From Ectothiorhodosinus mongolicus (GTDB lineage Bacteria; Pseudomonadota; Gammaproteobacteria; Ectothiorhodospirales; Ectothiorhodospiraceae): DNA of 64,000 nt. How positions within the stretch are numbered: position 1 is the stretch's first letter; each line of letters opens with the position of its first letter. Of this stretch, positions 12,449-54,372 are shown piece by piece. The stretch is from assembly GCF_022406875.1 (NCBI RefSeq), contig NZ_CP023018.1:655575-719574 (forward strand), written 5' to 3'. A program made the translations under genes and the position numbers. The notes below the pieces were generated by a model. It saw nothing but the letters and a program-made list of their open reading frames with translations. It made no database searches and was not told where the DNA came from.

Positions 12449-12451
12449 TTT

Positions 12452-12796: not shown

Positions 12797-12801
12797 GAGA
12801 A

Positions 12802-13176: not shown

Positions 13177-13193
13177 AAAATAAATCCGTCCCC
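13177..13193. repeat. AAAATAAATCCGTCCCC repeat
   Basis: Single inverted-orientation copy just downstream of the VapC gene stop. Confidence 0.85.
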
Positions 13194-13208
13194 TTTTTGG
13201 CCAAGCCG

Positions 13209-13649
13209 TTAAAAACGAGCCACCTTAAAGCCTATGCTCGTTGCGGCATTGGCCATCACTGCGTCGGCAGTGGCCAGTTCAGTCACACCAACGTGTGAGG
13301 CAATGGTTAAATGCAGCGCATCCAGTGTGCGCAACGGATGCTCGGGGTAGCGCGTGATCAGACGAGCTGTTTCATCAAAGCGCGAATCGTCGATGCGATA
13401 GCGTTGTAACCAGCCGCGATCAATGTCCTCGAGAAACGCTGAAAACAGAACGGACTCCAATTCAGCCGTCAGCTCCCCCATGCGCTGGCGCCGCCTGAGC
13501 AACGAGCGCATTTCCGTCACCGTCAGGCTGCTGATCACCGCCACATCCAGCGTCTGAAGATAGTCCACAAAGGCGTCTGAGCCAGACTCGTTGAGATACC
13601 ACTTGGCCAGCGCACTGGTATCGATATACACGCGACGCTCAGCGCTCAT
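13209..13649 (-). CDS. VapC-like PIN-domain toxin
   Basis: 146 aa PIN-domain ribonuclease. The first acidic residue is in VYIDTSALAKWYLNE, the second in SSLTVTEMRSLLRR, and the third and fourth in LRTLDALHLTIA and ELATADAVM; together they form the metal-binding acidic cluster. It lies 5 bp downstream of a Phd-type antitoxin (module 2). Length and order fit a complete, probably active module. Confidence 0.85.
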   Translation of the reverse strand: MSAERRVYIDTSALAKWYLNESGSDAFVDYLQTLDVAVISSLTVTEMRSLLRRRQRMGELTAELESVLFSAFLEDIDRGWLQRYRIDDSRFDETARLITRYPEHPLRTLDALHLTIASHVGVTELATADAVMANAATSIGFKVARF

Positions 13650-13654
13650 CGCAC

Positions 13655-13882
13655 TCAGCGCTCGTCTCGTTCCGCACGAATCAGTTCCGCCGAAGGGGTC
13701 TGCAACCGCGCCATCCGCAGGCGCAGATCGGCATGGTCGGGGAATTGACGGTGCGCCGCCATCGGCAAAATTCGGGCAATGGGTTGGCCACGACGACTGA
13801 TCACCAATTCGCCTTCTTCGGCCACCAACTCATCTAAGCGACCAATGTTGGCGCGCATCTCACGGATATTCAGCTCTTTCAT
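13655..13882 (-). CDS. Phd-like antitoxin
   Basis: 75 aa from the Met at 13882 (MKELNIREMRANIGRLDELV). A longer frame to 13966 runs through the promoter and is rejected. ELVISRRGQPIARILPM is the Phd/YefM core; the charged C-terminus (LIRAERDER) is the likely toxin-binding tail. A long palindrome lies just upstream. The first part of this gene and its promoter are duplicated at 44998-45178. Confidence 0.85.
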   Translation of the reverse strand: MKELNIREMRANIGRLDELVAEEGELVISRRGQPIARILPMAAHRQFPDHADLRLRMARLQTPSAELIRAERDER

Positions 13883-13898
13883 GGGGCTCTCTGTGTAT

Positions 13899-13927
13899 TG
13901 TGCTGCAAATGAGAAATTTGTAGCACA
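13899..13927 (-). promoter_or_regulatory. Palindromic operator of the Phd/VapC module
   Basis: TGTGCTGCAAAT, 5 bp spacer, ATTTGTAGCACA: 11 of 12 positions pair. It sits 17 bp before the antitoxin start, where these complexes usually bind to repress their own operon. The palindrome is also kept in the duplicate at 45097-45124. Confidence 0.6.
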
Positions 13928-14041
13928 TCTACCTGTGGCCGTCAAAGCGATACAACACGGATTCACGCCGTTTTCAGCCGATCACATCGGTAATCCTCAA
14001 AGGCATGTTTGCTGACACTGGGGGCAGGCCTGTTAGGGCAA

Positions 14042-14083
14042 AAAATAAATCTGCCCCCTTTCACCGAAAATAAATCTGTCCCC
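14042..14083. repeat. Two AAAATAAATCTGTCCCC copies
   Basis: Tandem copies at 14042-14058 (CTGCCCCC variant) and 14067-14083, downstream of the sugar transferase gene. Confidence 0.85.
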
Positions 14084-14097
14084 GTTTAAACTCCGTT

Positions 14098-14649
14098 TTA
14101 ACTCCGCACGCGATCACCGGCCCCTTTGCCAAGAACCGTCATAAAAATAAACCGGAAATAATCCCAAAGGCCCAAGGAAGACAGCATCTCGGCATCGGTC
14201 TTCGCCAAGAGCGCCGGCGTCGACATGTCAATGCCCTGCACTTGCGCCAAGCCAGTAATCCCCGGCCGCGCGGAAAACACACCCAACGCGGCACGCTCGG
14301 CAATCAGCTCTGCTTGATTGAACAAGCACGGGCGCGGGCCCACCAGGCTCATCTCGCCGCGCAGCACATTCCAAAGCTGCGGCAACTCATCCAACTTCGT
14401 GCGCCGCAAAAAACGCCCAAAGGGCGTAACGGCCGAGGCATCCGCCAAATGCGTGGCCACCGACGCGGTATCCGGGCGCATGGTACGAAACTTCACCAGG
14501 ACAAAGGGCTGTTGATGCTGCCCCACCCGCTCCTGCAAAAACAACGGCGATCGGTTATCAAACCACCCAATCACCCACAGCAGCAGCAATACTGGTGATA
14601 ACACCACCAGACCGAAAAAAGCAAAACACAAATCAAATAGGCGTGTCAT
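14098..14649 (-). CDS. PglC-type initiating sugar-phosphate transferase
   Basis: 183 aa bacterial sugar transferase (small monotopic phosphoglycosyl transferase). It has one N-terminal hydrophobic re-entrant helix (LCFAFFGLVVLSPVLLLLWV), then RSPLFLQERVGQ, KFRTM and the catalytic block RTKLDELPQLWNVLRGEMSLVGPRP. It transfers a sugar phosphate to undecaprenyl phosphate and starts the repeat unit. The short form without extra N-terminal membrane helices is typical for enzymes that use WbpM/PglF-derived amino sugars, consistent with the WbpM-like gene in the same block. Confidence 0.9.
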   Translation of the reverse strand: MTRLFDLCFAFFGLVVLSPVLLLLWVIGWFDNRSPLFLQERVGQHQQPFVLVKFRTMRPDTASVATHLADASAVTPFGRFLRRTKLDELPQLWNVLRGEMSLVGPRPCLFNQAELIAERAALGVFSARPGITGLAQVQGIDMSTPALLAKTDAEMLSSLGLWDYFRFIFMTVLGKGAGDRVRS

Positions 14650-14657: not shown

Positions 14658-14706
14658 CCCGCTTCGCGGTGGATCGCCGCGCGACTCCGTCGCTCGCGAT
14701 GAAGTG
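14658..14706. repeat. Palindromic repeat, TCATTGCGAGG...GTGGCAATCC family
   Basis: GCTTCGCGGTGGATCGCC ... GTCGCTCGCGATGAAG resembles the second repeat family of the window, which also occurs at 16476-16560, 31472-31507, 32181-32259 and inside rfbB. Confidence 0.6.
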
Positions 14707-16475: not shown

Positions 16476-16560
16476 GAAGCGTGGCGGGACTCGGCAATCC
16501 ATTTCCTTAACCGTCATTGCGGGGAGGCGTAGCCGACGTGGCAATCCATTCCTTTACCGT
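16476..16560. repeat. Two copies of the palindromic GTCATTGCGRGG...GTGGCAATCC repeat
   Basis: Copies around 16476-16502 and 16514-16552, with TGGCAATCCATT repeated. The 150 bp between yoeB and the AbiEii remnant hold nothing else recognisable. Confidence 0.7.
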
Positions 16561-29052: not shown

Positions 29053-29234
29053 ACGCATCATTCGGTTTAAGGCCCTAGTCAGCCGCATTGACCATCGTTA
29101 TTCATCTAATTTACGATCCGAAGCGTCGACCCCGGATCCGCCTCTGCTTGCGCATGCGCCCGGGGTTCAGTTTTTCACGACGAGCCATTCAGCCTCGCGT
29201 GTCGGGCGCGATTGGTCCTATTGCAGATCGAGCA

Positions 29235-29252
29235 GAAAATAATTACGTCCCC
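29235..29252. repeat. Degenerate AAAATAATTACGTCCCC repeat
   Basis: A diverged member of the GGGGACAGATTTATTTT family. The surrounding 29053-29283 gap holds no gene that I can support. Confidence 0.5.
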
Positions 29253-29283
29253 TTTTCAGCCTATAGACCAAGCTTGCTAATGC

Positions 29284-29634
29284 TCAGGCAACAATCTTGA
29301 ACTGCGTCGCTTTGGCTACCGGCTTCAGGCAACGACGCCCGGCAGGTTTGAGCTCGACCAGGCCATAGTGGGACATGGTTTTGAGCGTCCTGGACAAATT
29401 GCTTTGCTTGCGCCCGGTTCGTTCGGCGAGTTCGCGGATCGACGGAGGCTGCTCTGCAGCAATAACCTTCAACAGCAACCTATTTTCATCACTCAGCACC
29501 TCTGCCAATGAGCGCATGGAGGGAAACCATACCTTCGGATCGCCGGGCTTGGGCTTCAAGTCGCCTTTGGCAATCTTGATCACCCGCTCCCGCATCTTAT
29601 CCTGGGGCAAAATCCCGATAGTTAACCTTTTCAT
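29284..29634 (-). CDS. Winged-helix regulator/antitoxin-like protein
   Basis: 116 aa. The C-terminal half is a MarR/ArsR-like winged helix: LSDENRLLLKVIAAEQPPSIRELAERTGRKQSNLSRTLKTMSHYGLVELKP. The N-terminal part (ERVIKIAKGDLKPKPGDPKVWFPSMRSLAEVL) is typical of small regulators paired with DUF6516-like proteins. It overlaps that gene by 4 bp. Together they resemble a toxin-antitoxin pair (module 8) with this protein as the DNA-binding part. Confidence 0.8.
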   Translation of the reverse strand: MKRLTIGILPQDKMRERVIKIAKGDLKPKPGDPKVWFPSMRSLAEVLSDENRLLLKVIAAEQPPSIRELAERTGRKQSNLSRTLKTMSHYGLVELKPAGRRCLKPVAKATQFKIVA

Positions 29635-29990
29635 CGCTTTTTCAGCTCCCTCAAAACCTCGTCGACTTCAGCGAAAAAGTGCCTAAGCAATTCTTCCGGA
29701 CACGAAAATGCATAAATCACCGGCTCGCGCTTCTCGAACGGATGGCGGTGATCAAAGGGCACTTTTTGCGCCTCATGCCTTTTCCCAGTCTGCTTCAGAC
29801 CATGAGCGTTGTCATAACCCATCAGGCGTTTTCCATCGCGCGCATGAAGGGTCAAGGAATACTTGATCCCGTGGGGTCTCTGCTCAGTCTCCTCAGCTCG
29901 CCGCGCCTCGATTTTGATCCACGAACCATCCTCCTGCACCAGAATTTGACCGTGTAGGTCAAGAAGAATCTCCAAACCACAATAAATCAT
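29631..29990 (-). CDS. DUF6516-like protein, putative toxin partner
   Basis: 119 aa. SWIKIEARRAEETEQRPHGIKYSLTLHARDGKRLMGYDNAHGL...DHRHPFEKREPVIYAFSCPEELLRHFFAEVDEVL resembles DUF6516 proteins, small partners of winged-helix regulators. Mechanism not established. Its promoter region is shortened by the IS3 copy that starts 36 bp upstream. Confidence 0.7.
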   Translation of the reverse strand: MIYCGLEILLDLHGQILVQEDGSWIKIEARRAEETEQRPHGIKYSLTLHARDGKRLMGYDNAHGLKQTGKRHEAQKVPFDHRHPFEKREPVIYAFSCPEELLRHFFAEVDEVLRELKKR

Positions 29991-30096
29991 ATCATCAGTT
30001 GATATCTTATTTCACAGGCGATTGGGGTAATCCCCCCGAAAAACAATCGAGGTAATAAGTGGAATTTTGTACCCTGATGAAGACAGGAGATTCCAC

Positions 30097-30363
30097 ATGC
30101 GACAATCACGTTTCACTGACAGCCAGATCATGGCGATACTCAAGCAGGCTGAGGCTGGCCTATCGGTTCCCGAACTCTGCCGCGAGCATGGCATCAGCAA
30201 CGCAACCTTCTACAAGTGGCGCTCCAAGTATGGCGGCATGGACACATCCATGATGAAACGCCTGAAAGAGCTTGAGGACGAGAACCGGCGCTTGAAGAAG
30301 ATGTACGCCGAGGAGCGGCTAAAGTCCGAGTTACGCAAGGAAGCCCTCGAGGGAAAGTGGTAA
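30097..30363 (+). CDS. IS3-family transposase OrfA
   Basis: 88 aa HTH protein, [44 protein letters not shown] then a leucine-zipper-like helix ([25 protein letters not shown]). Nearly identical to OrfA at 53803-54069. Start at the ATG matching the other copy. It cannot mobilise this element alone because OrfB is broken. Confidence 0.9.
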   Translation: MRQSRFTDSQIMAILKQAEAGLSVPELCREHGISNATFYKWRSKYGGMDTSMMKRLKELEDENRRLKKMYAEERLKSELRKEALEGKW

Positions 30364-30388
30364 GGCCGTCTCATCGCCGTGAGATGAC

Positions 30389-30829
30389 CAGCTGGCTGAT
30401 GGCAGAACATACCGCTTGTTCAACGTCATTGATGACTACAACCGAGAGGGACTGATCATTGATGCTGACTTCTCATTGCCGGCCGAGCGGGTGATCCGCT
30501 CATTAACCCAACTGATTGAATGGCGTGGCAAACCCAAGGCGATTCGCTGCGACAACGGTCCAGAACTCGTCAGTCATAAGCTGGTTGAGTGGGCGAAAAG
30601 CCAAGGCATCGAACTGCGTTATATACAACCTGGGAAGCCCCAACAGAATGCCTATGTCGAGCGTTACAACCGAACCATTCGCTATGACTGGCTGAGCCAC
30701 TATCTGTTCGACTCAATCGGTGAGGTTCAATACTTTGCCACCCGTTGGCTCTGGACATACAACCACGAACGACCGAATATGGCTTTGGGCGGCTTTACCC
30801 CCAAGCAAAAGATGGCGATGGCTGCCTAA
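30389..30829 (+). pseudogene. IS3-family transposase OrfB, 3' part only
   Basis: Open from the codons of [30 protein letters not shown] to the end ([16 protein letters not shown]). The catalytic rve (DDE) core from the second Asp ([14 protein letters not shown]) to the Glu ([17 protein letters not shown]) is present, but the N-terminal half and first Asp (SMDFMHDQ) are lost and the frame to the upstream codons is shifted. Confidence 0.85.
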
Positions 30830-30871
30830 GGAGCTCTACTTATCGCCTCGGTTATAAATGGGGGGATTACC

Positions 30872-30945
30872 GTTTCACACTGTTCGTAATAATCAATTGC
30901 GAGTCGAAACTCTTCCCGAGCCTCTGGATGGAACGCATACTTCAC
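30872..30945 (-). pseudogene. ParE-like toxin truncated by an IS element
   Basis: A GTG at 30945 sharing its first base with the antitoxin's stop begins VKYAFHPEAREEFRLAIDYYEQCE, the usual ParE/RelE start. After 24 codons the frame enters the IS end at 30871. The rest is not found on the far side, so it was lost. The antitoxin remains without a toxin. Confidence 0.75.
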
Positions 30946-31166
30946 TATGAAAACCGCTTCGAGATCTCGGCAAACACCTCTTCACCTGATACTGGCTTGG
31001 CTGAGCCTGATTGAATCTCATCCAACCGTCGCTTCGCGACTCCCGCCCACTGTTTGTCAATGTCTAAGTTCGGTGCATTTAAGCCCTTGAGCACCAGGTC
31101 AGCTATCTTCGCGCGCTCATCCACAGGAAGTGATTCGATTTCTCGCAGCAGGTCTTCTGTTTTCAT
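30945..31166 (-). CDS. Addiction-module antitoxin (orphaned)
   Basis: 73 aa from the Met at 31166. EDLLREIESLPVDERAKIADLVLKGLNAPNLDIDKQWAGVAKRRLDEIQSGSAKPVSGEEVFAEI is the addiction module component family usually coupled to a ParE/RelE toxin. The coupled toxin has been cut off by the IS, so this is an orphan antitoxin. Confidence 0.8.
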   Translation of the reverse strand: MKTEDLLREIESLPVDERAKIADLVLKGLNAPNLDIDKQWAGVAKRRLDEIQSGSAKPVSGEEVFAEISKRFS

Positions 31167-31261
31167 CACGACGCGTCCTCCACACTGATTCAACACCCAG
31201 CAAGCTTAATGCATACGGCCCTTAATCCCCAATTCACTTCCCGGCTTCGAGTATGCCCCCA

Positions 31262-31430
31262 CTATCACAACCCCAACACCGGCCTTTCCCGCCCCACCCT
31301 CGGAAACCCGATCAGCAGGTAATCATTCGGCAGCTCGGCAATCACCACAAAGTCGGCGACGGCTTGGTGGGAGCGCAGCGAGGCGGCATTGTGGCGGCTG
31401 ATGGTGGAGCGGGTGCGCAAGCCTGCCAGG
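31262..31430 (-). pseudogene. GNAT acetyltransferase fragment, copy 3
   Basis: About 170 bp matching the last third of copies 1 and 2 (the region of HNAASLRSHQAVADFVVIAELP and the C-terminus). It ends abruptly at 31430, immediately followed by an AAAATAAATCCGTCCCC repeat at 31435. Confidence 0.7.
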
Positions 31431-31434
31431 ACAG

Positions 31435-31507
31435 AAAATAAATCCGTCCCCTTTTCGCTCCTTTTCGGCCCTCATTGCGAGGCTTCGCAGAAGCCGTGGC
31501 AATCCAT
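31435..31507. repeat. Two different repeat families side by side
   Basis: AAAATAAATCCGTCCCC at 31435-31451 is followed by a CTCATTGCGAGGCTTCGCAG-type palindrome at 31472-31507. Both families of the window meet here, at the edge of the GNAT fragment. Confidence 0.85.
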
Positions 31508-32180: not shown

Positions 32181-32259
32181 CTGGATCGCCACGCGACTAC
32201 GTCGCTCGCGATGACGAGAAAAGTCATTGCGAGGCTTCGCAGAAGCCGTGGCAATCCAT
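32181..32259. repeat. Two palindromic TCATTGCGAGG / GGATCGCC repeats
   Basis: A CTGGATCGCCACGCGACTAC...CGCGATGAC unit (32181-32215) and a TCATTGCGAGG...GTGGCAATCC unit (32223-32259) in the gap between the RHH antitoxin and the epimerase. They form the same kind of hairpin as the units inserted in rfbB. Confidence 0.8.
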
Positions 32260-34364: not shown

Positions 34365-35639
34365 CTACAACCGCAAATCCGCCGCATCCGACGGCAGCAA
34401 ATATTTCAAGTCATAGATCACAGAATCCGCTTTACCAAAAGCTCGAATACGCTCAGGCCCAAGGTCTTTGAACTCCGCATGAGCAACCGCAAGAATCATC
34501 GCGTCATAGGCGCCAGCGCTGGGGTGCGGGATTGGCGTAATGCCGTATTCGTGTTCTGCTTCTGCCACGCTGACCCACGGGTCATACACATCGACCGCAA
34601 TGTTGTATTGCTTTAACTCACTGACAATATCCACCACGCGAGTGTTGCGCAGATCCGGGCAGTTCTCTTTGAAGGTCAGGCCCATCACCAACACTCTGGC
34701 GCCTTCAATTTGGATCGACTTTTTGATCATCGCTTTGATTAATTGCGACACCACATAGGCGCCCATACCGTCATTTAATCGCCGACCTGCCAAGATAATT
34801 TCAGGGTGATAGCCAATGGCCTCGGCTTTATAGGTCAAATAATATGGGTCCACGCCGATACAGTGCCCGCCGACCAGACCCGGGCGAAACGGCAGGAAGT
34901 TCCATTTGCTGCCCGCGGCTTCGAGCACCGCCTGCGTATCAATGCCCATCTTATTAAAGATCATCGCCAACTCGTTAATCAGGGCGATATTTAAATCGCG
35001 CTGGGTGTTCTCAATCACTTTGGCGGCTTCGGCGACCCGGATGCTGGGCGCTTTATGCGTGCCGGCAGTGATGATGTCCCGATAGAGTGCATCCACGACC
35101 TCGGCGATCTCGGGCATAGACCCAGAGGTCACCTTCTTGATCGTGGTGACGCGGTGCTCCTTATCGCCCGGGTTGATGCGCTCCGGGCTGTAGCCGCAGA
35201 AGAAGTCCTGGTTAAAGGACAGGCCCGACTCGCGCTCCAGAACCGGCACGCAGTCATCCTCGGTGCAACCCGGATACACGGTGGATTCATAGATCACAAT
35301 GTCGCCGGCCTTCAGCACCTTACCCACCGTTTCGCTGGCCTTGAGCAAAGGCCCCAGGTCGGGGCGCTTGTGCGCATCAATCGGCGTCGGCACAGTGACG
35401 ATATAACAGTTAACCGAGTGCAGATCAGCCAGATCTGTGGAAAAACGCAAATGGGAAGCCGCACGCAGTTCGTCTTCTGTGGTTTCCAGTGTTACATCCG
35501 TACCCTCTTGCAACTCGGCGATACGCTTGCGGTTAATGTCAAAACCGAGTACTGGCCGGTGCTTGCCGAACTCCACCGCCAGTGGCAGGCCCACATAGCC
35601 CAAGCCGATGATGGCGAGTTTCAAATGATTCAATTCCAT
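34365..35639 (-). CDS. tviB: UDP-HexNAc 6-dehydrogenase, TviB/WbpO-like
   Basis: 424 aa nucleotide-sugar dehydrogenase. The NAD motif [18 protein letters not shown] is at the N-terminus. The catalytic Cys is in [27 protein letters not shown] near 255, and [24 protein letters not shown] near 320. Length and the adjacent TviC-like epimerase match the Vi-type pair that yields UDP-GalNAcA. The 424-residue length with [19 protein letters not shown] separates it from simple UDP-Glc dehydrogenases. Symbol by resemblance, not proven. Confidence 0.9.
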
Positions 35640-35672
35640 GGGGTTACTCTTTTAAGACGAAATAGACCGCGA

Positions 35673-36653
35673 TCAGGCGTTCTGGCTATACCAATCGACC
35701 GCTTCGGTCAGCCCTTCGCGCAAGCGGTGCGTGGGCGCATAGCCCAGAAAATTCGCTGCCTTGCTGATGTCGGCCAGACTATGGCGCACATCGCCTGGGC
35801 GAAAATCGCGGTAAGTGGGTCTAGCATCCTCCAAGTGCGGATAACGCGAAAGAAGTTGCTGCTGAATTTCGCCATACAACTCATTCAGCGTAGTGCGATC
35901 GCCTACAGCCACGTTATAGACCTGATTGACTGCGTCTGGATTGTTCGTGGTGGCTGCCAGCAAGTTGGCTTGCACTGCGTTATCGATATAGCAGAAGTCG
36001 CGGCTGGTTTCGCCATCGCCATTGATATAGACCGGTTCACCTTTGATCAGGGCCGCCGTCCACTTGGGAATCACTGCCGCATAGGCACCATCCGGGTCTT
36101 GCCGACGACCAAACACATTGAAGTAACGCAGCCCGATACATTCCATGCCATAGGTCTTGGCAAACACATCGGCATAGAGTTCATTCACCACCTTGGTGAC
36201 CGCATAGGGTGACAGCGGCCGGCCAATCTTATCTTCCTCCTTCGGCAGATCGGGATGATCGCCATAGGTGGAGCTGCTCGCGGCATACACAAATCGCTTG
36301 ACCTTCGCATCGCGCGCGGCGACCAGCATGTTCAGAAAGCCATCAATGTTATTCGCATTGGCGGTGATGGGGTCTTCAATCGAACGCGGCACCGAACCCA
36401 GCGCCGCCTGGTGCAGAACAACATCAACGCCGTCACACGCCTGTTTACACGCAGCCAGATCGCGAATATCTCCTTTGATAAAGCGAAAGCGTTGCCATTG
36501 CTCGGCAGTGACTAATGATTGCACTTCAACCAGATTCTTCTGGTGTCCCGTGGAGAAGTTATCCAACCCAACAACGGTTTGGTTCTGCTTCAGCAAGGTT
36601 TCTAAAAGATTGGAGCCGATGAAGCCGGCGACGCCGGTGATGAGATATTTCAT
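35673..36653 (-). CDS. tviC: UDP-GlcNAc(A) C4 epimerase, TviC/WbpP-like
   Basis: 326 aa from the Met at 36653. [31 protein letters not shown], then [16 protein letters not shown] (the WbpP/TviC-type substrate motif), [13 protein letters not shown] and the catalytic [22 protein letters not shown]. Typical UDP-HexNAc 4-epimerase. With TviB-like 34365 it supplies UDP-GalNAc/GalNAcA. A longer frame adds seven residues upstream. Confidence 0.92.
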
Positions 36654-36753
36654 TTGTTGATGGCCTCGTTCCATGCAGCGTAATCACAACTGCCCGCGCT
36701 ATCGGAATTAAAGTGAATCTGACATCGACACTCAAAAGCAGTATTGACCGAGT

Positions 36754-37848
36754 TCAATTATTTTGCTCCGCCAAAACGTCACGATATGTAGCCAGATACT
36801 GATCAGCCATTTTTTCTAAAGTAAACTTTTCCGATTGCTTGCGGGAAGTAGTGGCCATGCTTTTAAAACCTTTATCATGTATATTTTCCACCGAAGCACG
36901 GATGCCACTAACCCATTCATCCACAGATTCAGGTGAATCTACCAAAATTACTGAAGGATTATCCTCGTCCAACACCTCGCGCAGACCGTCCACATTGGAG
37001 GCTACCACGGGTAAACCCGTAGACATTCCCTCTACTGCCACCAGACCAAATCCTTCCCAAAGCGATGGAATTAGCTGAATATCTGCCGCATGCAGGTGGG
37101 CCTCGATGTCATCGGACCAACCTAACAACTTAACCTTATCTCCTAATTTCAAGTCTTCGATTAATCTTTCAAGGCGTGGACGCTCAGAACCTTCACCAAT
37201 GATTGTGTATGATTCGACTTCATCTCTTAATTGAGCAATAGCAATGATCGCCGTAGCAAAATTCTTTCTGGAGGAAAGAGAACCAATCGAAATCAACCGA
37301 GCAGTTCGCCCTTCAAGCGTTGAGCGTTCAATGACAGAATAAACGCGAGAACCATTGGGAATGGTAACCAACCGCTGAGCGATTTTTGGTCCCACCCAAT
37401 TTTCGAGCGATTTCTTCACACCGTCACTGATACAAATAATGCGTTCGTATCGCGAATATAGAAGACGCTCCAACAACCAAATAATAGGGATATTACGACG
37501 TTTATTAGTTGTGTTGTGTTCGGTGTATATCAGCTTGACATTATTCAACCCAAGGCTTGCCAGACTGGCATAGAAAAAAGGCCAGGTAAGGTGAACATGA
37601 ACAATTAAATCACTATTTTCACTACGGGCAAGGCTTTTCAGGGCTTTACGGATTTTGAAAATGTTAAATGGACTACGAGGATTTACTCCGAATACAGTTT
37701 CGTTTTGACTTTGAGTATGTTTATCTGCAACAGAATAAATAACGTGCGAATCTAATTTCTGACTCAGATAGATTCTATGTAGCTCCCGAACAAGCAACTC
37801 TGCGCCTCCACCTATTGGTGATGAGATTATATTTATTGCAATCATCAA
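36754..37848 (-). CDS. GT4-type glycosyltransferase
   Basis: 364 aa. The N-terminus IISSPIGGGAELLVRELHRI carries the GT4 glycine turn; ARLISIGSLSSRKNFATAIIAI near 190; donor block PSLWEGFGLVAVEGMSTGLPVVASNVDGLREVL. It overlaps the Wzy-like gene by 4 bp. Base composition here drops (A+T-rich), as in the next two genes, a usual feature of serotype-specific, transferred polysaccharide genes. Confidence 0.92.
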   Translation of the reverse strand: MMIAINIISSPIGGGAELLVRELHRIYLSQKLDSHVIYSVADKHTQSQNETVFGVNPRSPFNIFKIRKALKSLARSENSDLIVHVHLTWPFFYASLASLGLNNVKLIYTEHNTTNKRRNIPIIWLLERLLYSRYERIICISDGVKKSLENWVGPKIAQRLVTIPNGSRVYSVIERSTLEGRTARLISIGSLSSRKNFATAIIAIAQLRDEVESYTIIGEGSERPRLERLIEDLKLGDKVKLLGWSDDIEAHLHAADIQLIPSLWEGFGLVAVEGMSTGLPVVASNVDGLREVLDEDNPSVILVDSPESVDEWVSGIRASVENIHDKGFKSMATTSRKQSEKFTLEKMADQYLATYRDVLAEQNN

Positions 37849-38969
37849 TAAGATATGTTTCTGTATACTTGGCCGTAAAAAATAGATAGCGAAAACAGAA
37901 ATGCCAAGAAATAAGCGGAAAAAAAAGACGGTATAAAATTAAATCCTAATAAAGCTATTACGATCGAATAAAAGATAAATTTGTTTTTTGAGAAAATAAT
38001 GTGGTACGCAGAGAATAACCAAAGAAAAAAAAGACTGCTAAATACTAAACCTCCCATGACAAGAGAATAGGTAAGTATATGGTGCGGTATTGTACCAGAA
38101 TCATATCTAACTGGATCCATCCAACTGCCAAATAATGGAAATGCCATCCAGTAATGAATGGCCTGCATGACACTCTCAACCCTTCCAGTGGATGCAAGCG
38201 TTACTTGCCTTACGCCTATAGCTGATAAAACAAAAACAAGAAAACCAACTATAATAAAGATACTTATACCAAGAAAAATAGAATTTTTACTTAACGTACC
38301 AGTTACGGTAGACCGAAATAGTGCATAGATCAGATAAAAGAAACAAAACAAGATCAACGCAGCGATTCCAGTTCTTGCAGACGTTAACACAGAAGCTACC
38401 AAAAGCAATACAGAGACGAAAATAGAAATCCATCTAGAAAAAATAATAAACACGAGAGGGATTGCACTAACAAAATAGAGCGATAGGAAACTAAAGTCTT
38501 TCCATAAAAAACTGAAGGCTATACGCCCACCCCCAAAAAGAGCAACCCGAAAAACTTCATTCCCAAGAATAAAAAAAGAATAAACCTGAAATAACACCCC
38601 TACAGCACAAAATATTACACCAATAACATAAATTTTAATTATATGATTGTAGTTTTTGTAATTAAAATCTTTTTTTCTCAGAAGAAACGGCCATAGCAAA
38701 AACGTCAAAAATAATAAGTAAGAAGTAATAAACTGAGCATTACCAGAGACAGCGAGTGAAATAATTGCAAACATTAAAATAATATAAGAACACGATAAGA
38801 TATATCGATTTCTATACACTAAAAAACTACTGAACCGAGAACAAAATATTTGGTATAAAAAAAGAAAAACATAGACTAATAGAACACCAAACGGAGCAAC
38901 ACGTAATCCATGATGCGAATAATATGAAAAAGGCACTAAGGCCGCGAGAGATATTGGTATGATATTCAT
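37845..38969 (-). CDS. O-antigen polymerase, Wzy-like
   Basis: 374 aa, very hydrophobic, about ten TM helices, notably A+T-rich and without the strong conservation of other genes. A large periplasmic loop (FGGGRIAFSFLWKDFSF; later GRVESVMQAIHYWMAFPLFGSWMDPV) resembles Wzy-type polymerases, which join lipid-linked units in the periplasm. Identity is by topology, a few motif-like residues and context between two GTs. It could instead be a flippase-unlike membrane protein of the ligase superfamily. Confidence 0.75.
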   Translation of the reverse strand: MNIIPISLAALVPFSYYSHHGLRVAPFGVLLVYVFLFLYQIFCSRFSSFLVYRNRYILSCSYIILMFAIISLAVSGNAQFITSYLLFLTFLLWPFLLRKKDFNYKNYNHIIKIYVIGVIFCAVGVLFQVYSFFILGNEVFRVALFGGGRIAFSFLWKDFSFLSLYFVSAIPLVFIIFSRWISIFVSVLLLVASVLTSARTGIAALILFCFFYLIYALFRSTVTGTLSKNSIFLGISIFIIVGFLVFVLSAIGVRQVTLASTGRVESVMQAIHYWMAFPLFGSWMDPVRYDSGTIPHHILTYSLVMGGLVFSSLFFLWLFSAYHIIFSKNKFIFYSIVIALLGFNFIPSFFSAYFLAFLFSLSIFYGQVYRNISY

Positions 38970-39052
38970 GGACTTTAATTTTGAAATAAATTTATAAATA
39001 AATCAGAATAAAAAATAAAATATTTCCCAATACTATTATTGTATTAACACTT

Positions 39053-40057
39053 TTAATACAAGTTTCGTTTAGATTTTTTATTGAATTTTTTTAATTTCTT
39101 AAATAAAAAATCAGGGAGGGTGCGTGCCGCTATCATTTTGGCAATAGATGATATGAACCCATATTCTATTTCTAGCCGTGGTCGACCATAAGCAGATAAA
39201 AGCTCGCGGGTTTCGAGCCACGTTTGAAGACCACCGCTTAAGCCTCCTGAACGGAAAAAGCCAACGGGTTGGTCCATGCATGCATACTTTATGTGTGCCA
39301 GAAGTAGTCGAAGTAAATAGTCATAGTCCGCACTAAGAGCATACTTCTCATTAAATAAACCTAAATTTTTATATATATTTATTCTTACATAAACGCCTTG
39401 GTGGGGACTTGGCATTTCATTCCACATACGCTCATAAATTTCATAATTAGCCAATGGCTTCACAATACCAAATACTTTTCCATCTAAATATGCTAACTCG
39501 ACCGGAGCCATTGTGAATCCGGCATTGTGTTCTGCTAGAAGTGCCTCAGCAATATTCTCGACCGTATGCAAGTAGATAACATCATCTGCATTTACTAAAC
39601 CTATGATATCTCCGAGCGCCAACCGAATTCCTTTGTTCATTGCATAATAGATACCATCATCGCTCTCACTCAACCAGTAATCAATCGCATGTTCATATTT
39701 TCGAATAATATCAAGTGTCCCATCCGAAGAGCCGCCATCGATGATGATATATTCGACATTGTCATAGGCCTGTTTGATGACGCTGAGGATGGTTTCTTCG
39801 AGATATTGTTCTCCGTTAAAAACAACGGTGATTACTGTAATCAACGGTTTTTCTTCGCTGCTTTTTTTGAAGTATCCCTTTGTGCGCAACCCGCCTACAG
39901 CTCTACAGCCTTCACCTTCGGGTTGGAAGATGATGGTTTCAAATTGATCTTCAGGTTTGTGTGCAGCTTTCAGCTCCGATTCAACTACCTCAGGCGCCAC
40001 TTTGCGCACAAGGCGCGTTGTGCTATACGCAGGATCCAATTCAATCCAATCGGTCAT
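39053..40057 (-). CDS. GT2-type glycosyltransferase with N-terminal extension
   Basis: 334 aa. After ~70 residues without a recognised domain (WIELDPAYSTTRLVRKVAPEVVE...), a GT-A domain starts with PLITVITVVFNGEQYLEETILSVIKQ. YIIIDGGSSDGTLDIIRKY and VNADDVIYLHT (the DxD) follow, typical inverting GT2. Cytoplasmic, peripheral. A+T-rich like its neighbours. It is the first gene of the block that runs down to 32264; a 100 bp gap separates it from the IS3 element. Confidence 0.9.
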   Translation of the reverse strand: MTDWIELDPAYSTTRLVRKVAPEVVESELKAAHKPEDQFETIIFQPEGEGCRAVGGLRTKGYFKKSSEEKPLITVITVVFNGEQYLEETILSVIKQAYDNVEYIIIDGGSSDGTLDIIRKYEHAIDYWLSESDDGIYYAMNKGIRLALGDIIGLVNADDVIYLHTVENIAEALLAEHNAGFTMAPVELAYLDGKVFGIVKPLANYEIYERMWNEMPSPHQGVYVRINIYKNLGLFNEKYALSADYDYLLRLLLAHIKYACMDQPVGFFRSGGLSGGLQTWLETRELLSAYGRPRLEIEYGFISSIAKMIAARTLPDFLFKKLKKFNKKSKRNLY

Positions 40058-45590: not shown

Positions 45591-46526
45591 CTACTTCATA
45601 AAGCCAGATGGCGATAACCACTGATAAACCCGATACAACCGTCTTATTTTTCGAAATATGCGTCTCGGCAAACTCGCAATCGCTGCTTGTGGTTTCCAAC
45701 TAAATTGAATGGATTCCAGTTGCTTGATAGCCTCTTTGAGATCATCACAGTACGGCTTATAAACATACTGCTTCAAAGCTAACGGCAGCGAATATTGCCC
45801 AATCAACAATTGCTTCCGAGAAAGAATTCTCAGCCCATGAAAGTGATAAAAGACTGCACGAGCGTAGGGAAAACGCATAGCGTTCCATGGTGCCAACGCG
45901 CGTTCTTTGTCCTGCAATATATGCACGAGTGCTTCAAACCGCTCTGGCCAATCGTCAAGATATTTTTGATCACCGAACTTGCCGTCTTCAAAGCGCGCAT
46001 AGCACCATTCAACACAGCGCTCTTCCCACCACTTGCGAACCATCTCACCACCATCGCGCGTAAATGTCATAAATTGCACGCAAAACTGACCAGATGTTGC
46101 CGAATGATCATATTCGGGCGCATAGGCATGATCGGTAATAAGAACGTGTTTTCCTGATGCATCCAACTCATCAAAGAGTGGTTTTGGGTGCTTGCGAAAC
46201 CACAAATCTGCATCCAAGTAAGTCACACGCTCAACTGTTGCATCAGCCTCAAAGACAAAGCGCGGAGCAAATGGCGTTAATGTCCAGCAATATTCATTAA
46301 TCTTTCTTCCCGGCTTAACTGATAGCAGTTCCTCTGTTTCCAATGCGCTTAGTTTCAACAACCGAACATTCGGCAATACCAGTCTTCCGAGCACATCATA
46401 GGTTTCATCATCAACGCACAAAATCCATAGAACATAATCTCGCACATGCCTTTCCATTGATCGATGCAGTGCCAAGCCTTGAGGCAGGAACAGACTATTG
46501 AAGAGCGTTACGAAATGTTCCATCAA
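45591..46526 (-). CDS. GT-A type glycosyltransferase (GT8-like)
   Basis: 311 aa. The N-terminus MEHFVTLFNSLFLPQGLALHRSMERHVRDYVLWILCVD is typical of GT8-like enzymes. VTYLDADLWFRKHPKPLFDEL contains the DxD metal motif (near residue 103), HAYAPEYDHSATSGQFCVQFMTFTRD the acceptor region, and FGDQKYLDDWPERF the later acidic motif. The start overlaps the end of the aminotransferase by 4 bp. Confidence 0.82.
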   Translation of the reverse strand: MMEHFVTLFNSLFLPQGLALHRSMERHVRDYVLWILCVDDETYDVLGRLVLPNVRLLKLSALETEELLSVKPGRKINEYCWTLTPFAPRFVFEADATVERVTYLDADLWFRKHPKPLFDELDASGKHVLITDHAYAPEYDHSATSGQFCVQFMTFTRDGGEMVRKWWEERCVEWCYARFEDGKFGDQKYLDDWPERFEALVHILQDKERALAPWNAMRFPYARAVFYHFHGLRILSRKQLLIGQYSLPLALKQYVYKPYCDDLKEAIKQLESIQFSWKPQAAIASLPRRIFRKIRRLYRVYQWLSPSGFMK

Positions 46527-47617
46527 GCCACCCGAAAACGATTGACCGCATCAATCACCGTTTGCACATCGGTATCACTCATCTGCGGGTGACAAGGAAG
46601 CGACAGGCAAGTAGCCGCATGCTGTTCACTCACATGTAATCCATCTGGGTCACGTTGAATCGATAAACACGGCTCTTGGTGATGCACTGGCACCGGATAA
46701 TGAATCAGCGTTTGCACGCCTTCGTTCGCAAGGTGCGCCTGCAAGGCATCACGTTGAGCACAAGTCACGACAAACAGGTGATACACATGCGCATCTTTCG
46801 ACTCAGGAGCTGCAAGCAAGCGCACTGAAGGATTATTCATTTCATCACGAAACGCCTGCGCAATCGTCTGTCGCCGTGACGTGAATTCCTCAAGCCACTT
46901 CAAGCGCTCAGTAAGCATCGCTGCTTGAATTTCATCCAGACGGCTATTAAGCCCTAATTCCGGATGATGATAGCGAACACTTTGCCCATAATTCCGCAGG
47001 CGGCCAGCCTTTGCAGCGATATCAGCATCATTCGTCACCAACATCCCCGCATCGCCGGGCGCTCCAAGATTTTTCGTGGGGTAAAAACTGTACGCGCCTG
47101 CAACTCCATAACTTCCAGCAGCGCGTCCCTCACTCTTTGCTAAATGGGCTTGTGCACAATCTTCAATCAAATAAAAACCCCGTTGCTCACAAAACTGTTG
47201 AAAGGACGCAATGTTGCAAACTTGGCCATAAAGGTGCACCAAAAGAACCGCTTTCGTTTGTTGTGTCACGCATCGTTCAACACTATCCAGGGAAAGCAGT
47301 GCCGTGTCCGCTTCAATATCTGCCAGCACAGGAATGGCACCCGCACGATAAATTGCCAATACAGTGGCAAAAGCCGTCATTGGCGTTGTGATCACTTCAT
47401 CGCCCGGCCCAATATTCAGCGCGCGCAACGCAATTTCAATGGCATCTATCCCATTGCCAACCCCAATGGCATGTGAAACGCGACAAGTACCTGCCCAAGC
47501 TGCTTCGAAATGCTCCACTTCTTTACCCAGCACATACCAACCCGACTCCAGCACGCGTTGCGCCGCTGCCAGCATGTCTTCGCGCAACGCTGCCGGCTCG
47601 GATTTGAAGTTATTCAT
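46523..47617 (-). CDS. DegT/DnrJ/EryC1-family sugar aminotransferase
   Basis: 364 aa from the Met at 47617. PLP-dependent aminotransferase: GVGNGIDAIEIALRALNIGPGDEVITTP, VHLYGQVCNIASFQQFCEQRGFYLIEDCAQAHLAK, with the PLP lysine in AYSFYPTKNLGAPGDAGML and LNSRLDEIQAAML. It adds an amino group to a keto-sugar nucleotide. With rfbA and rfbB nearby and no rfbC/rfbD, the likely product is a dTDP-4-amino-4,6-dideoxy (or 3-amino) hexose. Confidence 0.9.
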   Translation of the reverse strand: MNNFKSEPAALREDMLAAAQRVLESGWYVLGKEVEHFEAAWAGTCRVSHAIGVGNGIDAIEIALRALNIGPGDEVITTPMTAFATVLAIYRAGAIPVLADIEADTALLSLDSVERCVTQQTKAVLLVHLYGQVCNIASFQQFCEQRGFYLIEDCAQAHLAKSEGRAAGSYGVAGAYSFYPTKNLGAPGDAGMLVTNDADIAAKAGRLRNYGQSVRYHHPELGLNSRLDEIQAAMLTERLKWLEEFTSRRQTIAQAFRDEMNNPSVRLLAAPESKDAHVYHLFVVTCAQRDALQAHLANEGVQTLIHYPVPVHHQEPCLSIQRDPDGLHVSEQHAATCLSLPCHPQMSDTDVQTVIDAVNRFRVA

Positions 47618-47653
47618 TAAAATCATTGAAACTACTCCAGAATTGCAGCCCGA

Positions 47654-50358: not shown

Positions 50359-51239
50359 CGATTCACTCGTGATCCAAAGCGCACCAGGTCATGAAGATAT
50401 TTCCCATAACTGCTCTTTCCAAGCGCCTGAGAAATACGTTCAAGGTCTTCGTCTTGCAGCCACCGATTTCGCCATGCAATTTCTTCTGGACAGGCAATCT
50501 TGAACCCCTGACGCTTTTCGATGGTCGCGATAAATAATGAAGCTTCGAGCAACGAATCTTGTGTTCCGGTATCGAGCCAAGCCATCCCCCTTCCAAAAGT
50601 CTCGACTTGCAGCATACCCCGCTTCAAGTAATGGTTATTAACCGAAGTGATTTCCAACTCCCCTCGCGCAGAAGGCTGGATCGATTTGGCAATGTCCACA
50701 ACTTGATTGTCGTAAAAATAAAGACCCGTAATCGCATATCGGGATTTGGGTTTTGCTGGCTTTTCCTCCACAGACAGGGCCCGGCCTGTCTCATCAAACT
50801 CAACAACTCCATAACGCTCAGGATCACTAACCGGATAGGCAAAAACCTGTGCCCCCTGCGCAATCTGGCTCGCTTTTTTTAAACAGCTGGTTAATTCATC
50901 GCCATAAAAAATGTTGTCGCCCAAAATCAAGCAGGAAGGCTCGCTCCCGACGAAATCCTCACCAATGAGGAAAGCTTGGGCGAGCCCATCCGGGCTGGGC
51001 TGCACAGCATACTGCAAGGAGATCCCCCACTGACTGCCATCACCTAAAAGCTGTTCAAAGCGTGGCGTGTCTTGCGGCGTCGAGATAATCAGTATGTCGC
51101 GGATTCCGGCCAGCATCAGCGTGCTCAGCGGGTAGTAGATCATCGGCTTGTCATAGACCGGCAGCAGCTGCTTGGAAATCGCCTGCGTCACAGGGTGCAG
51201 ACGCGTGCCGGAACCGCCCGCAAGGATGATGCCCTTCAT
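50355..51239 (-). CDS. rfbA: Glucose-1-phosphate thymidylyltransferase
   Basis: 294 aa. [48 protein letters not shown] is the RmlA signature; [44 protein letters not shown] and [15 protein letters not shown] are all intact. Makes dTDP-glucose. The 4 bp overlap with rfbB shows one operon. rfbC and rfbD are absent, so dTDP-rhamnose is not the end product here. Confidence 0.97.
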
Positions 51240-52432
51240 GTTGCAGTCCCTTTTTCATTCTCAATCACGCCCAGCCGCTGGCGCTGATAGCTGCCGTCTT
51301 GGACGTGCTGACACCAAGTAGCATTGTTCAGATACCACTCCACGGTTTTTCGGAGTCCCGTCTCAAAGGTTTCTGCCGGCACCCAGCCCAGATCCTTCTT
51401 GATCTTGCTCGCATCAATTGCGTAACGCTGGTCGTGGCCGGGGCGGTCTGCAACATAGGTGATGAGGTCTTTGTAACTATTCACGTCATCGCGAGCGACG
51501 AAGTCGCGCGGCGATCCACTCAGCGGGACAAGTTCATCCAAGATATCGCAGAGACGATGAACGACCTCAAGATTGGTCTTCTCGTTGTAACCACCAATAT
51601 TGTAGGTCTCACCTATCCGACCTTCAGTCACGACCTTGTAGAGCGCCCGAGCATGATCTTCGACATGCAGCCAATCCCGAATCTGTTGGCCATTGCCATA
51701 AACCGGCAAGGGCTTGCCCTCAAGGGCATTGAGGATCATGAGCGGAATGAGTTTTTCCGGGAATTGGTAGGGACCATAGTTATTCGAACAATTGGTGATC
51801 AACACCGGTAGGCCATAGGTCCGATGCCAGGCACGCACGAGATGATCGGAACTCGCTTTGGAAGCCGAGTATGGAGAGCTCGGGTCGTAGGCCGTTTCTT
51901 CGGTGAACAGCCCAGTATCGTCGAGACTGCCGTAGACCTCATCGGTAGAAATGTGGTGAAAACGGAAGGACTCTTTTGTTGCCCCCGACGTCATCGCGAG
52001 GGCCGAAGGCCCGTGGCGATCCATACCGTCGATGTGGATTGCTTCGTCGGCTTCGCCTCCTCGCAAAGACAATAATTGTTTCCAATATTCCAGCGCACAT
52101 TCGAGCATCACGGAAGTACCAACAATGTTGGTTTGAATGAATTCAGCCGGTCCGTCAATCGAACGATCGACATGCGACTCGGCAGCAAGATGCATCACGA
52201 CGTCGGGCTTGAAATCAGCAAAGAGTTTCGAAACGAGAGCGCGGTCGCAGACATCGCCCTGAACAAATTGATACCGAGGGTTACTCGAAACCGCAGCGAG
52301 AGATTCCAAGTTCCCGGCATACGTAAGCTTGTCAAGATTCAGAACCTGATGATCGGTTTCATTGATCAAAAAACGAATAACAGCAGAGCCAATGAAGCCA
52401 GCACCACCTGCGATAAAAAAATTCAACTTCAT
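51236..52432 (-). CDS. rfbB: dTDP-glucose 4,6-dehydratase with in-frame repeat insertions
   Basis: 398 aa against the usual ~350-360. Standard blocks are present: [71 protein letters not shown] and [15 protein letters not shown]. Two extra segments are encoded by palindromic repeats: about residues 121-149 ([20 protein letters not shown]...) just before the [10 protein letters not shown] motif, and 306-316 ([13 protein letters not shown]) before [16 protein letters not shown]. Both keep the frame. Whether the enzyme still folds is unknown. Confidence 0.95.
51485..51518. repeat. Palindromic repeat inside rfbB, unit 1
   Basis: GTCATCGCGAGCGACGAAGT...GGCGATCC, a member of the TCATTGCGAGG...GTGGCAATCC family, inserted in frame in rfbB near codons 306-316. 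Confidence 0.8.
51989..52072. repeat. Palindromic repeat pair inside rfbB, unit 2
   Basis: GTCATCGCGAGGGCCGAAGG...GGCGATCCA followed by an opposite-facing TGGATTGCTTCGTC...CTCGCAAAGACA. The two units lie head to head and add ~29 codons to rfbB near codons 121-149 without a stop or frameshift. Confidence 0.8.
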
Positions 52433-52939: not shown

Positions 52940-52981
52940 GGTAATCCCCCCATTTATAACCGAGGCGATAAGTAGAGCTCA

Positions 52982-53809
52982 TTAGGCAGCCATCGCCATT
53001 TTCTGCTTGGGGGTAAAGCCGCCCAAAGCCATATTCGGTCGTTCGTGGTTGTATGTCCAGAGCCAACGGGTGGCAAAGTCTTGAACCTCAGCGATCGAGT
53101 CGAACAGATAGTGGCTCAGCCAGTCATAGCGAATGGTTCGGTTGTAACGCTCGACATGGGCATTCTGTTGGGGCTTGCCAGGTTGGATATAACGCAGTTC
53201 GATGCCTTGGCTTTTCGCCCACTCAACCAGCTTATGACTGACGAGTTCTGGACCGTTGTCGCAGCGAATCGCCTTGGGTTTGCCACGCCATTCAATGAGT
53301 TGGGTTAATGAGCGGATCACCCGCTCAGCCGGCAATGAGAAGTCAGCATCAATGATCAGCCCCTCTCGGTTGTAGTCATCAATGACGTTGAACAAGCGGT
53401 ATGTTCTGCCATCAGCCAGCTGGTCATGCATGAAGTCCATCGACCAACAGTCATTTATCGCCTGAGGCACTGCTAGGGGTTCTGGCTTTTCACGCACCAG
53501 GCGCTTTTTGGGTTTGATTCTCAGGTTCAGCTCCAACGCACGATAGATCCGATAGACACGCTTGTGATTCCACCGAAAGCCTTTGACGTTACGCAGGTAC
53601 AGAAAACACAAACCAAAGCCCCAGTTGCGCTGATTGTGTGTCAGGCGCACCAACCAATCCGCAATGCGGGCATTCTCTGAACCAAGCTTGGATTGGTAGC
53701 GGTAACAGGTCTGACTGATTGAGAACGCCTGGCACGCAAGGCTGATGCAACAACGCCCTGATGCCACCGCTTTTCTGGCCATCTCACGGCGATGAGACGG
53801 CCTTACCAC
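52982..53809 (-). CDS. IS3-family transposase OrfB
   Basis: 275 aa. [33 protein letters not shown] (first Asp), [22 protein letters not shown] (second Asp) and [19 protein letters not shown] (Glu) form the complete DDE core. It overlaps orfA by 7 bp at the AGGCCGT joint. Intact and probably active. Confidence 0.93.
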
Positions 53810-54069
53810 TTTCCCTCGAGGGCTTCCTTGCGTAATTCAGACTTCAGCCGCTCCTCGGCATACATCTTCTTCAAGCGCCGGTTCTCGTCCTCGAGCTCTT
53901 TAAGACGCTTCATCATGGATGTGTCCATGCCGCCATACTTGGAGCGCCACTTGTAGAAGGTTGCGCTGCTGATGCCATGCTCGCGGCAGAGTTCGGGAAC
54001 TGATAGGCCAGCCTCAGCCTGCTTGAGTATCGCCATGATCTGGCTGTCAGTGAAACGTGATTTACGCAT
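53803..54069 (-). CDS. IS3-family transposase OrfA
   Basis: 88 aa from the Met at 54069. [44 protein letters not shown] with a coiled-coil end; nearly identical to 30097-30363. Confidence 0.93.
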
Positions 54070-54140
54070 GTGGAATCTCCTGTCTTCATCAGGGTACAAA
54101 ATTCCACTTATCACCTCGATCATTTTTCGGGGGGATTACC

Positions 54141-54372
54141 CAACCATGAGCATCGGCACAGTGCTATCCAGTATGTCACGCCCGCTCAGCGACATGCCGG
54201 TGTTGATCAAGTGTTGCTTCAACAGCGCACAAAGCTCTATGAAGCAGCCAAAGCCGCGCAGCCGCGGCGCTGGTCAGGCCCCATCCGAAACTGGAGAAGA
54301 GCCGACAAAGTCTGGCTGAATCCACCAAAAGACTTGCAGGCTGATAAACCACCATCAGTTAAGGCTGCGTAA
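54141..54372 (+). pseudogene. Outer IS transposase C-terminal remnant
   Basis: HRHSAIQYVTPAQRHAGVDQVLLQQRTKLYEAAKAAQPRRWSGPIRNWRRADKVWLNP is the C-terminus of a transposase of the kind that starts at 52640. The middle of that element is missing, so more than the simple insertion occurred. Confidence 0.75.

What the first reader, a model, noticed from the sequence alone, without database searches (positions are those of the whole stretch)
51236..52432. Two in-frame palindromic repeat insertions inside rfbB
The repeat family seen in gaps at 16514, 31472 and 32223 also occurs twice inside rfbB, adding ~29 codons near residue 121 and ~11 near 306 while leaving all catalytic motifs intact and the frame open. 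This resembles the in-frame palindromic elements of Rickettsia but in an unrelated setting.
Basis: seen in the sequence. Interest (0 to 1): 0.75.

Follow-up and report, generated by a model that had tools for sequence, protein, structure and literature searches.

The report
REP palindromes translated inside rfbB
A sugar-making enzyme gene in this bacterium carries short palindromic repeats inserted at two places and translated as extra loops with the reading frame and catalytic motifs intact, a rare but already described kind of event that recurs here in sugar genes of related soda-lake bacteria.

Summary
rfbB (51236-52432, minus strand, 398 aa, a dTDP-glucose 4,6-dehydratase) contains three units of one palindromic repeat family in two insertions: a pair with CCA ends facing (51990-52070, residues 121-148) and a single unit (51485-51518, residues 305-316). 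None of the 102 homologues examined has the first insert; the second lies in a loop that already varies in length. Catalytic motifs and frame are intact, and both inserts map to loops of an RmlB model.

The repeat resembles the CGTC-tagged REPs of Di Nocera et al. 2013. That paper equates Rickettsia RPE-4 and RPE-6 with CGTC REPs and lists intragenic REPs in many species, so this is a variant of a known kind, not Rickettsia-like in an unrelated setting.

Added here: the 8 copies found in the 2.0 Mb genome lie within 37.4 kb of a polysaccharide region, none in nine congeners, which suggests import (composition evidence is mixed). The same family sits in frame in gmd, a nucleotide-sugar dehydrogenase and a beta-CASP nuclease of two sister-genus genomes (one is Thioalkalivibrio paradoxus by exact genome length); two of these genes, compared between the genomes, are under purifying selection. 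Enzyme activity is not shown.

The parts
51236..52432 (-). rfbB/rmlB, dTDP-glucose 4,6-dehydratase, 398 aa, carrying both insertions
   Evidence: TIGR01181 499 bits over a 365.1 cut-off; PDB 1bxk and 1g1a homologues with gaps at the inserts; model aligned to 1g1a, Z 46.5, rmsd 1.8, 340 residues
51990..52070 (.). Insertion 1 (residues 121-148): pair of REP units with CCA ends facing, 34+11+36 nt
   Evidence: regex scan, pair geometry, absent in 102 of 102 homologues examined
51990..52023 (+). REP unit a of insertion 1
   Evidence: CM 49.3 bits, E 4.6e-9
52035..52070 (-). REP unit b of insertion 1 (TGTC tag)
   Evidence: CM 35.5 bits, E 6.4e-6
51485..51518 (+). Insertion 2 (residues 305-316): single REP unit in a length-variable loop
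   Evidence: CM 46.1 bits, E 2.5e-8; loop variation in homologues
14670..14703 (-). REP unit, upstream of a sugar transferase gene
   Evidence: CM 40.6 bits; Pfam Bac_transf at 14098-14649
16513..16548 (+). REP unit outside the long ORFs
   Evidence: CM 40.6 bits; ORF list
31471..31506 (+). REP unit outside the long ORFs
   Evidence: CM 36.5 bits; ORF list
32182..32215 (-). REP unit, pair with GTC ends facing 32223-32258 (7-nt spacer)
   Evidence: CM 44.2 bits; geometry
32223..32258 (+). REP unit, partner of 32182-32215
   Evidence: CM 40.8 bits
50355..51239 (-). rfbA/rmlA, overlaps rfbB by 4 nt, complete (294 aa)
   Evidence: TIGR01207 514.8 bits over a 360.65 cut-off
46523..47626 (-). DegT/DnrJ/EryC1/StrS aminotransferase; that it uses the RmlB product is inference
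   Evidence: PF01041 353 bits

Best explanation
Two insertions of a non-autonomous, CGTC-like REP element landed inside an intact rmlB gene, once as a facing pair and once as a single unit, in lengths that kept the frame. Each is translated as an extra loop: about 28 residues, mostly predicted disordered, after the helix that ends at residue 122, and about 11 residues in a loop that varies in homologues. The enzyme most likely still works, because the core fold and nearly all conserved residues are kept. The repeats, with rfbB and parts of the polysaccharide region, probably came in by horizontal transfer from a repeat-rich relative of the kind now seen in Thioalkalivibrio. Shown: the repeat family, its place, the open frame, the loop positions, the confinement to one region, and parallel in-frame copies in sister-genus genes, two of them under purifying selection. 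Inferred: mobility of the element, direction of transfer, and retained RmlB activity.
For: The model finds 8 units in the window and counts 8 in the whole genome and 0 in 9 congeners (only 3 of the 8 own places were printed, but all 8 window hits pass that call's threshold; 150 of 1700 candidates of this genome were scored). All 6 strict or relaxed pattern hits of the genome lie in the window, none in 9 congeners. Bound for 8 random points within 37,401 of 1,995,095 bp: 6.5e-12. Insert 1 is absent from 102 of 102 homologues examined. rfbB deviates at 1 of 117 highly conserved columns, rank 26 of 98 rows. Residues 129-131 and 133-151 have pLDDT under 50 in a model of mean pLDDT 82.3, core Z 46.5 to 1g1a. 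Six congeners' rfbB fall in one clade (SH-aLRT 99, with one Halomonas row) that excludes the window's. The 5-kb piece with rfbB is further in tetranucleotide make-up from six genome stretches than any of 18 background pieces. The same family is in frame in gmd, ugd and a beta-CASP gene of G046 and in ugd and beta-CASP of G023; the window's own gmd and ugd lack the inserts; dN and dS of the gene bodies are 0.016 and 0.096 (ugd), 0.008 and 0.067 (beta-CASP).
Against: No enzyme activity, expression or structure was measured. No close relative with an empty site was found (best identity 73% over 357 columns), so junctions and target duplications cannot be read. No transposase could be tied to the element; the genome has one Y1 transposase hit, outside the window. 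T8A changes a residue of the glycine-rich NAD motif that is nearly invariant elsewhere. Against import: the three other 5-kb pieces that hold repeat units (10-15, 15-20 and 30-35 kb) have background-like tetranucleotide make-up; only 1 of 4 repeat-bearing pieces deviates. The rfbB tree is a quick one on 60 rows and the group around the window row is open (SH-aLRT 86). The repeats have about as many open frames as shuffled sequence, so they are not specially protein-adapted.
Confidence: 0.68

Rival explanations
1. The inserts have inactivated or weakened RmlB: the gene is an early pseudogene whose frame happens to be open.
For: T8A in the NAD-binding motif; rhamnose epimerase RmlC was not found in the genome, so the classical rhamnose pathway looks absent; IS3-type elements lie at 30 and 53 kb.
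Against: One deviation in 117 conserved columns, no stop or frameshift, intact adjoining rfbA, a possible alternative user in the neighbouring DegT aminotransferase (inference), and sister-genus genes with such inserts under purifying selection.
Confidence: 0.15
2. The repeats were not imported with the region but spread locally inside this polysaccharide region after its assembly.
For: In the sister-genus genomes many copies also cluster, as arrays around 1.19-1.25 Mb (G023) and 0.59-0.72 Mb (G046), so local multiplication occurs in this family; three of four repeat-bearing pieces of the window have ordinary composition for this genome.
Against: No copy in 9 congeners; most of the window's units differ from each other in their inner stems, unlike the near-identical arrays of G046; the rfbB piece's composition and the rfbB tree point outwards.
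Confidence: 0.25
3. The translated repeats are domesticated: they give the enzyme a useful new surface, for example a linker or a partner-binding loop, and are kept for that.
For: The ugd insert is shared by G023 and G046 with 0 synonymous and 2 non-synonymous changes (too few to test); nucleotide-sugar enzymes are hit in three cases (rfbB, gmd, ugd).
Against: The beta-CASP array changes length between the two genomes and evolves nearer to neutrality (dN 0.029, dS 0.039, few sites); most of insert 1 of RmlB is predicted disordered; the numbers are too small for a test.
Confidence: 0.07
4. Site 2 is an ordinary length variant of a loop and its likeness to the repeat is chance.
For: 6 of 102 homologues have 8-23 residues at site 2 (not checked for the repeat one by one, but the 80 named loci hold no convincing unit).
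Against: CM score 46.1 bits, E 2.5e-8 over the window; 95% complementary over 38 nt to the stretch 14669-14706.
Confidence: 0.03

Closest known systems
CGTC-tagged REPs (Di Nocera et al. 2013, PMC3733652)
   Same: Tag CGTC/TGTC/CCTC at one end, A/T start of the stem, CCA tail, dimers, some units inside genes
   Different: Outer stem of 5 bp, an internal loop and an inner hairpin with a 3-nt loop instead of one 8-9 bp stem with a 4-5 nt loop. Pairs with CCA ends facing outnumber pairs with GTC ends facing (53 to 22); the paper calls tail-to-tail dimers rare in CGTC families, but I did not verify its head/tail convention. The two Thioalkalivibrio genomes in that paper had GTAG families
Rickettsia palindromic elements RPE-4, RPE-6 (and RPE-1)
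   Same: Short palindromes in frame inside apparently functional genes; RPE-4 and RPE-6 are classed as CGTC REPs in PMC3733652
   Different: Sequence relation not tested here; RPEs as first reported are given as about 150 bp in a review (PMC10969869, passages), the units here are 28-39 nt
REP sequences with RAYT transposases / REPINs (PMC3116915, PMC2817692, search listing only)
   Same: Short palindromes in inverted pairs at regular spacing
   Different: No RAYT next to the units was established; tag is not GTAG
RmlB / RfbB dTDP-glucose 4,6-dehydratases (PDB 1bxk, 1g1a)
   Same: Fold, NAD motif, TDE and YxxxK motifs
   Different: Two REP-encoded loops

Membership tests
CGTC-tagged REP families (Di Nocera 2013) | Terminal CGTC motif, often TGTC or CCTC | tested here: met
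   6 of 8 window units; 203 of 222 units in fetched loci of four sister-genus genomes are CGTC or TGTC (GTC was in the search pattern, the first base was free)
CGTC-tagged REP families (Di Nocera 2013) | Complementary A-T at the first stem positions | tested here: met
   first pair A-U in 28 of 29 distinct rows, second pair U-A in 23 and C-G in 6 of 29
CGTC-tagged REP families (Di Nocera 2013) | CCA tail | tested here: met
   8 of 8 window units, 216 of 222 others (CCA was part of the pattern with one mismatch allowed)
CGTC-tagged REP families (Di Nocera 2013) | Stem of 8-9 bp with a loop of 4-5 nt | tested here: not met
   5-bp outer stem, internal loop, inner hairpin with 3-nt loop in most units folded; hence not filed as CGTC-1 to CGTC-4
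CGTC-tagged REP families (Di Nocera 2013) | No dedicated transposase | tested here: inconclusive
   one Y1_Tnp hit in the genome outside the window, partial and longer hits in G023 and G046
Rickettsia palindromic elements | In-frame insertion in genes that encode complete proteins | tested here: met
   rfbB, gmd, ugd, beta-CASP
Rickettsia palindromic elements | Sequence of RPE-4 or RPE-6 | not tested
   no RPE sequence was held; Genome Res 2002 paper not held
RAYT-mobilised REP / REPIN | Flanking RAYT gene and GTAG tag | tested here: inconclusive
   tag is CGTC-like; RAYT adjacency only looked at through PF01797 in 12 genomes
RmlB dTDP-glucose 4,6-dehydratase | TIGR01181 over cut-off and catalytic motifs | tested here: met
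   499.3 over 365.1 bits; GGAGFIG, T163-D164-E165 and Y188, K192 present (motif roles recalled)

The most novel reading that the evidence does not exclude
In this family of sulfur-oxidising and related gammaproteobacteria, a CGTC-like REP has become a recurrent source of new protein segments: arrays of it grow and shrink in frame inside nucleotide-sugar enzymes and other genes of polysaccharide islands, move between genera with those islands, and some of the resulting loops are kept by selection.
Probability: 0.2. Interest if true: 0.7.

Novelty: new variant of a known kind. Interest (0 to 1): 0.45.

Why it matters
Palindromic repeats that become protein are best known from Rickettsia and were catalogued as intragenic REPs in 2013. 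Here one well-understood enzyme carries two such insertions in loops, and sister genomes offer homologous genes with and without them and an array of different length. That makes it possible to measure what such insertions cost or give to an enzyme, with at least one free-living genus to work in.

Tried and rejected
Rfam found no family in the window at gathering scores. The idea that the repeat is specially stop-poor was tested and dropped: in 14 units, 4 to 6 of 6 frames are open, against shuffle means of about 3.9 to 5.3. RNA folding of the two rfbB inserts is weak evidence at best against shuffles (z -1.90 with 8 of 200 as low, and z 0.03). A dedicated transposase was sought by PF01797 and none could be tied to the element. 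The 80 named loci around rmlB hold no convincing unit (one hit, E 0.85).

Other repeat-bearing genomes of the class (G215, G161, G293, G179; 47 units in 20 fetched stretches): 11 ORFs of 150 aa or more held units away from their ends, 5 of them were scanned with Pfam, and none showed a unit in the interior of a Pfam-supported gene; the HemN and TatD ORFs carry units only on the N-terminal side of the domains. In the sister-genus genomes I scanned a selection of 29 ORFs over repeats, not every ORF, so the counts of units in genes are lower bounds; many of these ORFs had no Pfam family and were not counted as genes, and the MbnB, GIY-YIG, formyl transferase and second beta-CASP (L150) ORFs carry units on the N-terminal side and were also left out.

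Rows dropped before counts: the short relaxed match at L151 6463-6487 inside gmd (one search counts 4 units there, I count 3) is judged chance. In one search, 102 of 109 loci gave a protein at E 1e-60. In one search, 5 of 103 rows under 55% identity or with few columns were left out. The tree used 60 of 103 rows.

Literature searches listed no paper on REP insertions in rmlB; several lists were capped, and only PMC open-licence papers are searched. Supplements of PMC3733652 could not be read.

Full report
What is there. The gene at 51236-52432 (minus strand) is a complete 398-codon dTDP-glucose 4,6-dehydratase (TIGR01181, 499 bits, cut-off 365), overlapping a complete rfbA by 4 nt. A pattern scan of the window finds 8 units of one palindromic family, and a covariance model built from 30 units (these 8 included) finds the same 8 with filters off. 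Three are inside rfbB: 51990-52023 and 52035-52070 form a facing pair of 81 nt (residues 121-148), and 51485-51518 is a single unit (residues 305-316). The other five are outside the selected ORFs of about 100 aa or more.

More than chance. In 30 aligned units the outer stem (AYYGC with GCRRT) keeps 99.3% of cells paired with 19 double changes, against a mean of 6.3 in shuffles; the number of pairs with a double change, 2, is not above shuffles. The shuffle control does not keep relatedness, but slid partners give at most 79.3% paired and no double change. The read-backwards control pattern gives no hit in the genomes searched.

Absent from homologues. At residues 304-315, 96 of 102 have at most 6 residues and 6 have 8 to 23, so that loop tolerates length change. 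PDB homologues 1bxk and 1g1a align on both sides of the inserts.

State of the enzyme. In 117 columns that are at least 95% conserved in the other rows, the window protein differs at one, T8A in the NAD motif; it ranks 26th of 98 rows, the worst have 7. An AlphaFold2 model (mean pLDDT 82.3) gives pLDDT under 50 to residues 129-131 and 133-151, that is most of insert 1, after the helix that ends at residue 122; insert 2 is in a loop of about pLDDT 70. The rest aligns to Salmonella RmlB 1g1a with Z 46.5, rmsd 1.8 over 340 residues. I infer, and did not show, that the enzyme works. Whether the loops approach the dimer interface was not examined. RmlC (PF00908) was not found in the genome, while a DegT-family aminotransferase lies nearby, so the product may feed an amino sugar rather than rhamnose (inference).

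Where the repeats are. In the whole 1,995,095-bp genome the model counts 8 matches, and the window alone holds 8 that pass the same threshold (the genome search scored 150 of 1700 candidates and printed 3 of the 8 places, all in the window). The strict and the relaxed pattern each find 6, all in the window, and none in nine congeners. Eight random points would fall within 37.4 kb with probability below 6.5e-12. The rfbB of six congeners falls in one clade (SH-aLRT 99, with one Halomonas row) that excludes the window's (quick tree of 60 rows, group around the window row open). Eight of 13 window pieces, including that of rfbB, are further in tetranucleotide make-up from the genome's background than any of 18 background pieces; but of the four pieces that hold repeat units only rfbB's is among them. 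Together this suggests that rfbB and parts of the region were imported, while the composition evidence for the rest of the repeat-bearing stretches is neutral or against.

Relatives with the same repeat. The strict pattern hits 14 of 116 genomes of a relatives set and 20 of 370 genomes drawn from the class, this genome included in both. Two genomes of a sister genus are rich: G023 (58 strict, 105 by model) and G046 (74 strict, 135 by model; the model counts scored 150 candidates each and are lower bounds). G023 has 3,756,729 bp, exactly the length given for Thioalkalivibrio paradoxus ARh 1 (PMC4653848, abstract). G046 encodes a protein whose mature part equals PDB 2zo5, an eight-heme nitrite reductase; that this enzyme is from T. 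nitratireducens is recalled. The species of the window itself remains unnamed.

Parallel insertions. In G046 the family sits in frame in gmd (3 units), a nucleotide-sugar dehydrogenase (ugd, 1 unit) and a beta-CASP nuclease (5 units); in G023 in the last two (1 and 3 units), out of 124 and 88 units in the stretches fetched, with only a selection of ORFs checked. The window's own gmd and dehydrogenase lack the inserts. Between G046 and G023 the bodies of the dehydrogenase and beta-CASP genes have dN 0.016, dS 0.096 and dN 0.008, dS 0.067, and the beta-CASP array differs in length in frame. So these genes are kept as proteins there. Pairs with CCA ends facing number 53 and with GTC ends facing 22 among 159 units of the window and loci L146-L183; the spacers of the former are 7-11 or 26-27 nt.

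What is known. Di Nocera et al. 2013 (PMC3733652; outline, passages, and the sections on CGTC families, dimers, genome distribution and part 1 of 2 of the discussion) describe CGTC-tagged REPs, equate R. conorii RPE-6 and RPE-4 with CGTC-1 and CGTC-4, list intragenic REPs, some genes with two insertions, and report GTAG, not CGTC, families in two other Thioalkalivibrio genomes. They also note REP arrays beside exopolysaccharide genes in Thauera. The unit here shares tag, first stem pairs and CCA tail, but not the 8-9 bp stem and 4-5 nt loop, so I call it CGTC-like and not a member of those four families. The kind of event is known; the case, the enzyme and the spread among polysaccharide genes of this family are what is added, as far as the searches named under Tried and rejected show.

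How it works, most likely. A short non-autonomous palindrome copies itself, by an enzyme not identified here, into many sites; insertions that break genes are lost, and those that land in tolerant loops with lengths divisible by three remain (inference). The repeat needs no special coding property for this. Nothing here shows a function for the added loops.

Noticed in passing
window 30025-30871 and 52940-54141: Two copies of an IS3-type element in inverted orientation (96-98% alike), the first with an internal gap, flank the 31-53 kb segment that holds six of the eight repeat units.
   Followed up: partly
window 4775-14092 and 29231-31460: A second short repeat, GGGGACRGATTTATTTT and its complement, occurs many times.
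   Followed up: no
L153:1474-1678, L165:1412-1617, L176:4530-4724 and others: In G046 and G023 many repeat pairs sit inside a dispersed element of about 200 bp with a spacer of 26-27 nt but variable sequence, MITE-like.
   Followed up: partly
L172:1507-2026: In the fetched G023 stretches only the 3' end of gmd was matched, shortly after a repeat pair, as if a rearrangement had used the repeats.
   Followed up: no
L012 (G012 rmlB): Another RmlB of the same family has a long low-complexity segment at the site-2 loop, unrelated to this repeat by eye.
   Followed up: no
window 35001-40000: A stretch of low GC (0.439) and strongly deviant tetranucleotide make-up within the polysaccharide region.
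   Followed up: no
G023:C1:1228195-1228359 and G046:C1:665833-665997: Partial Y1 transposase matches lie about 0.5 kb from a repeat unit in both genomes; no intact transposase was recognised among the ORFs of the G023 stretch.
   Followed up: partly
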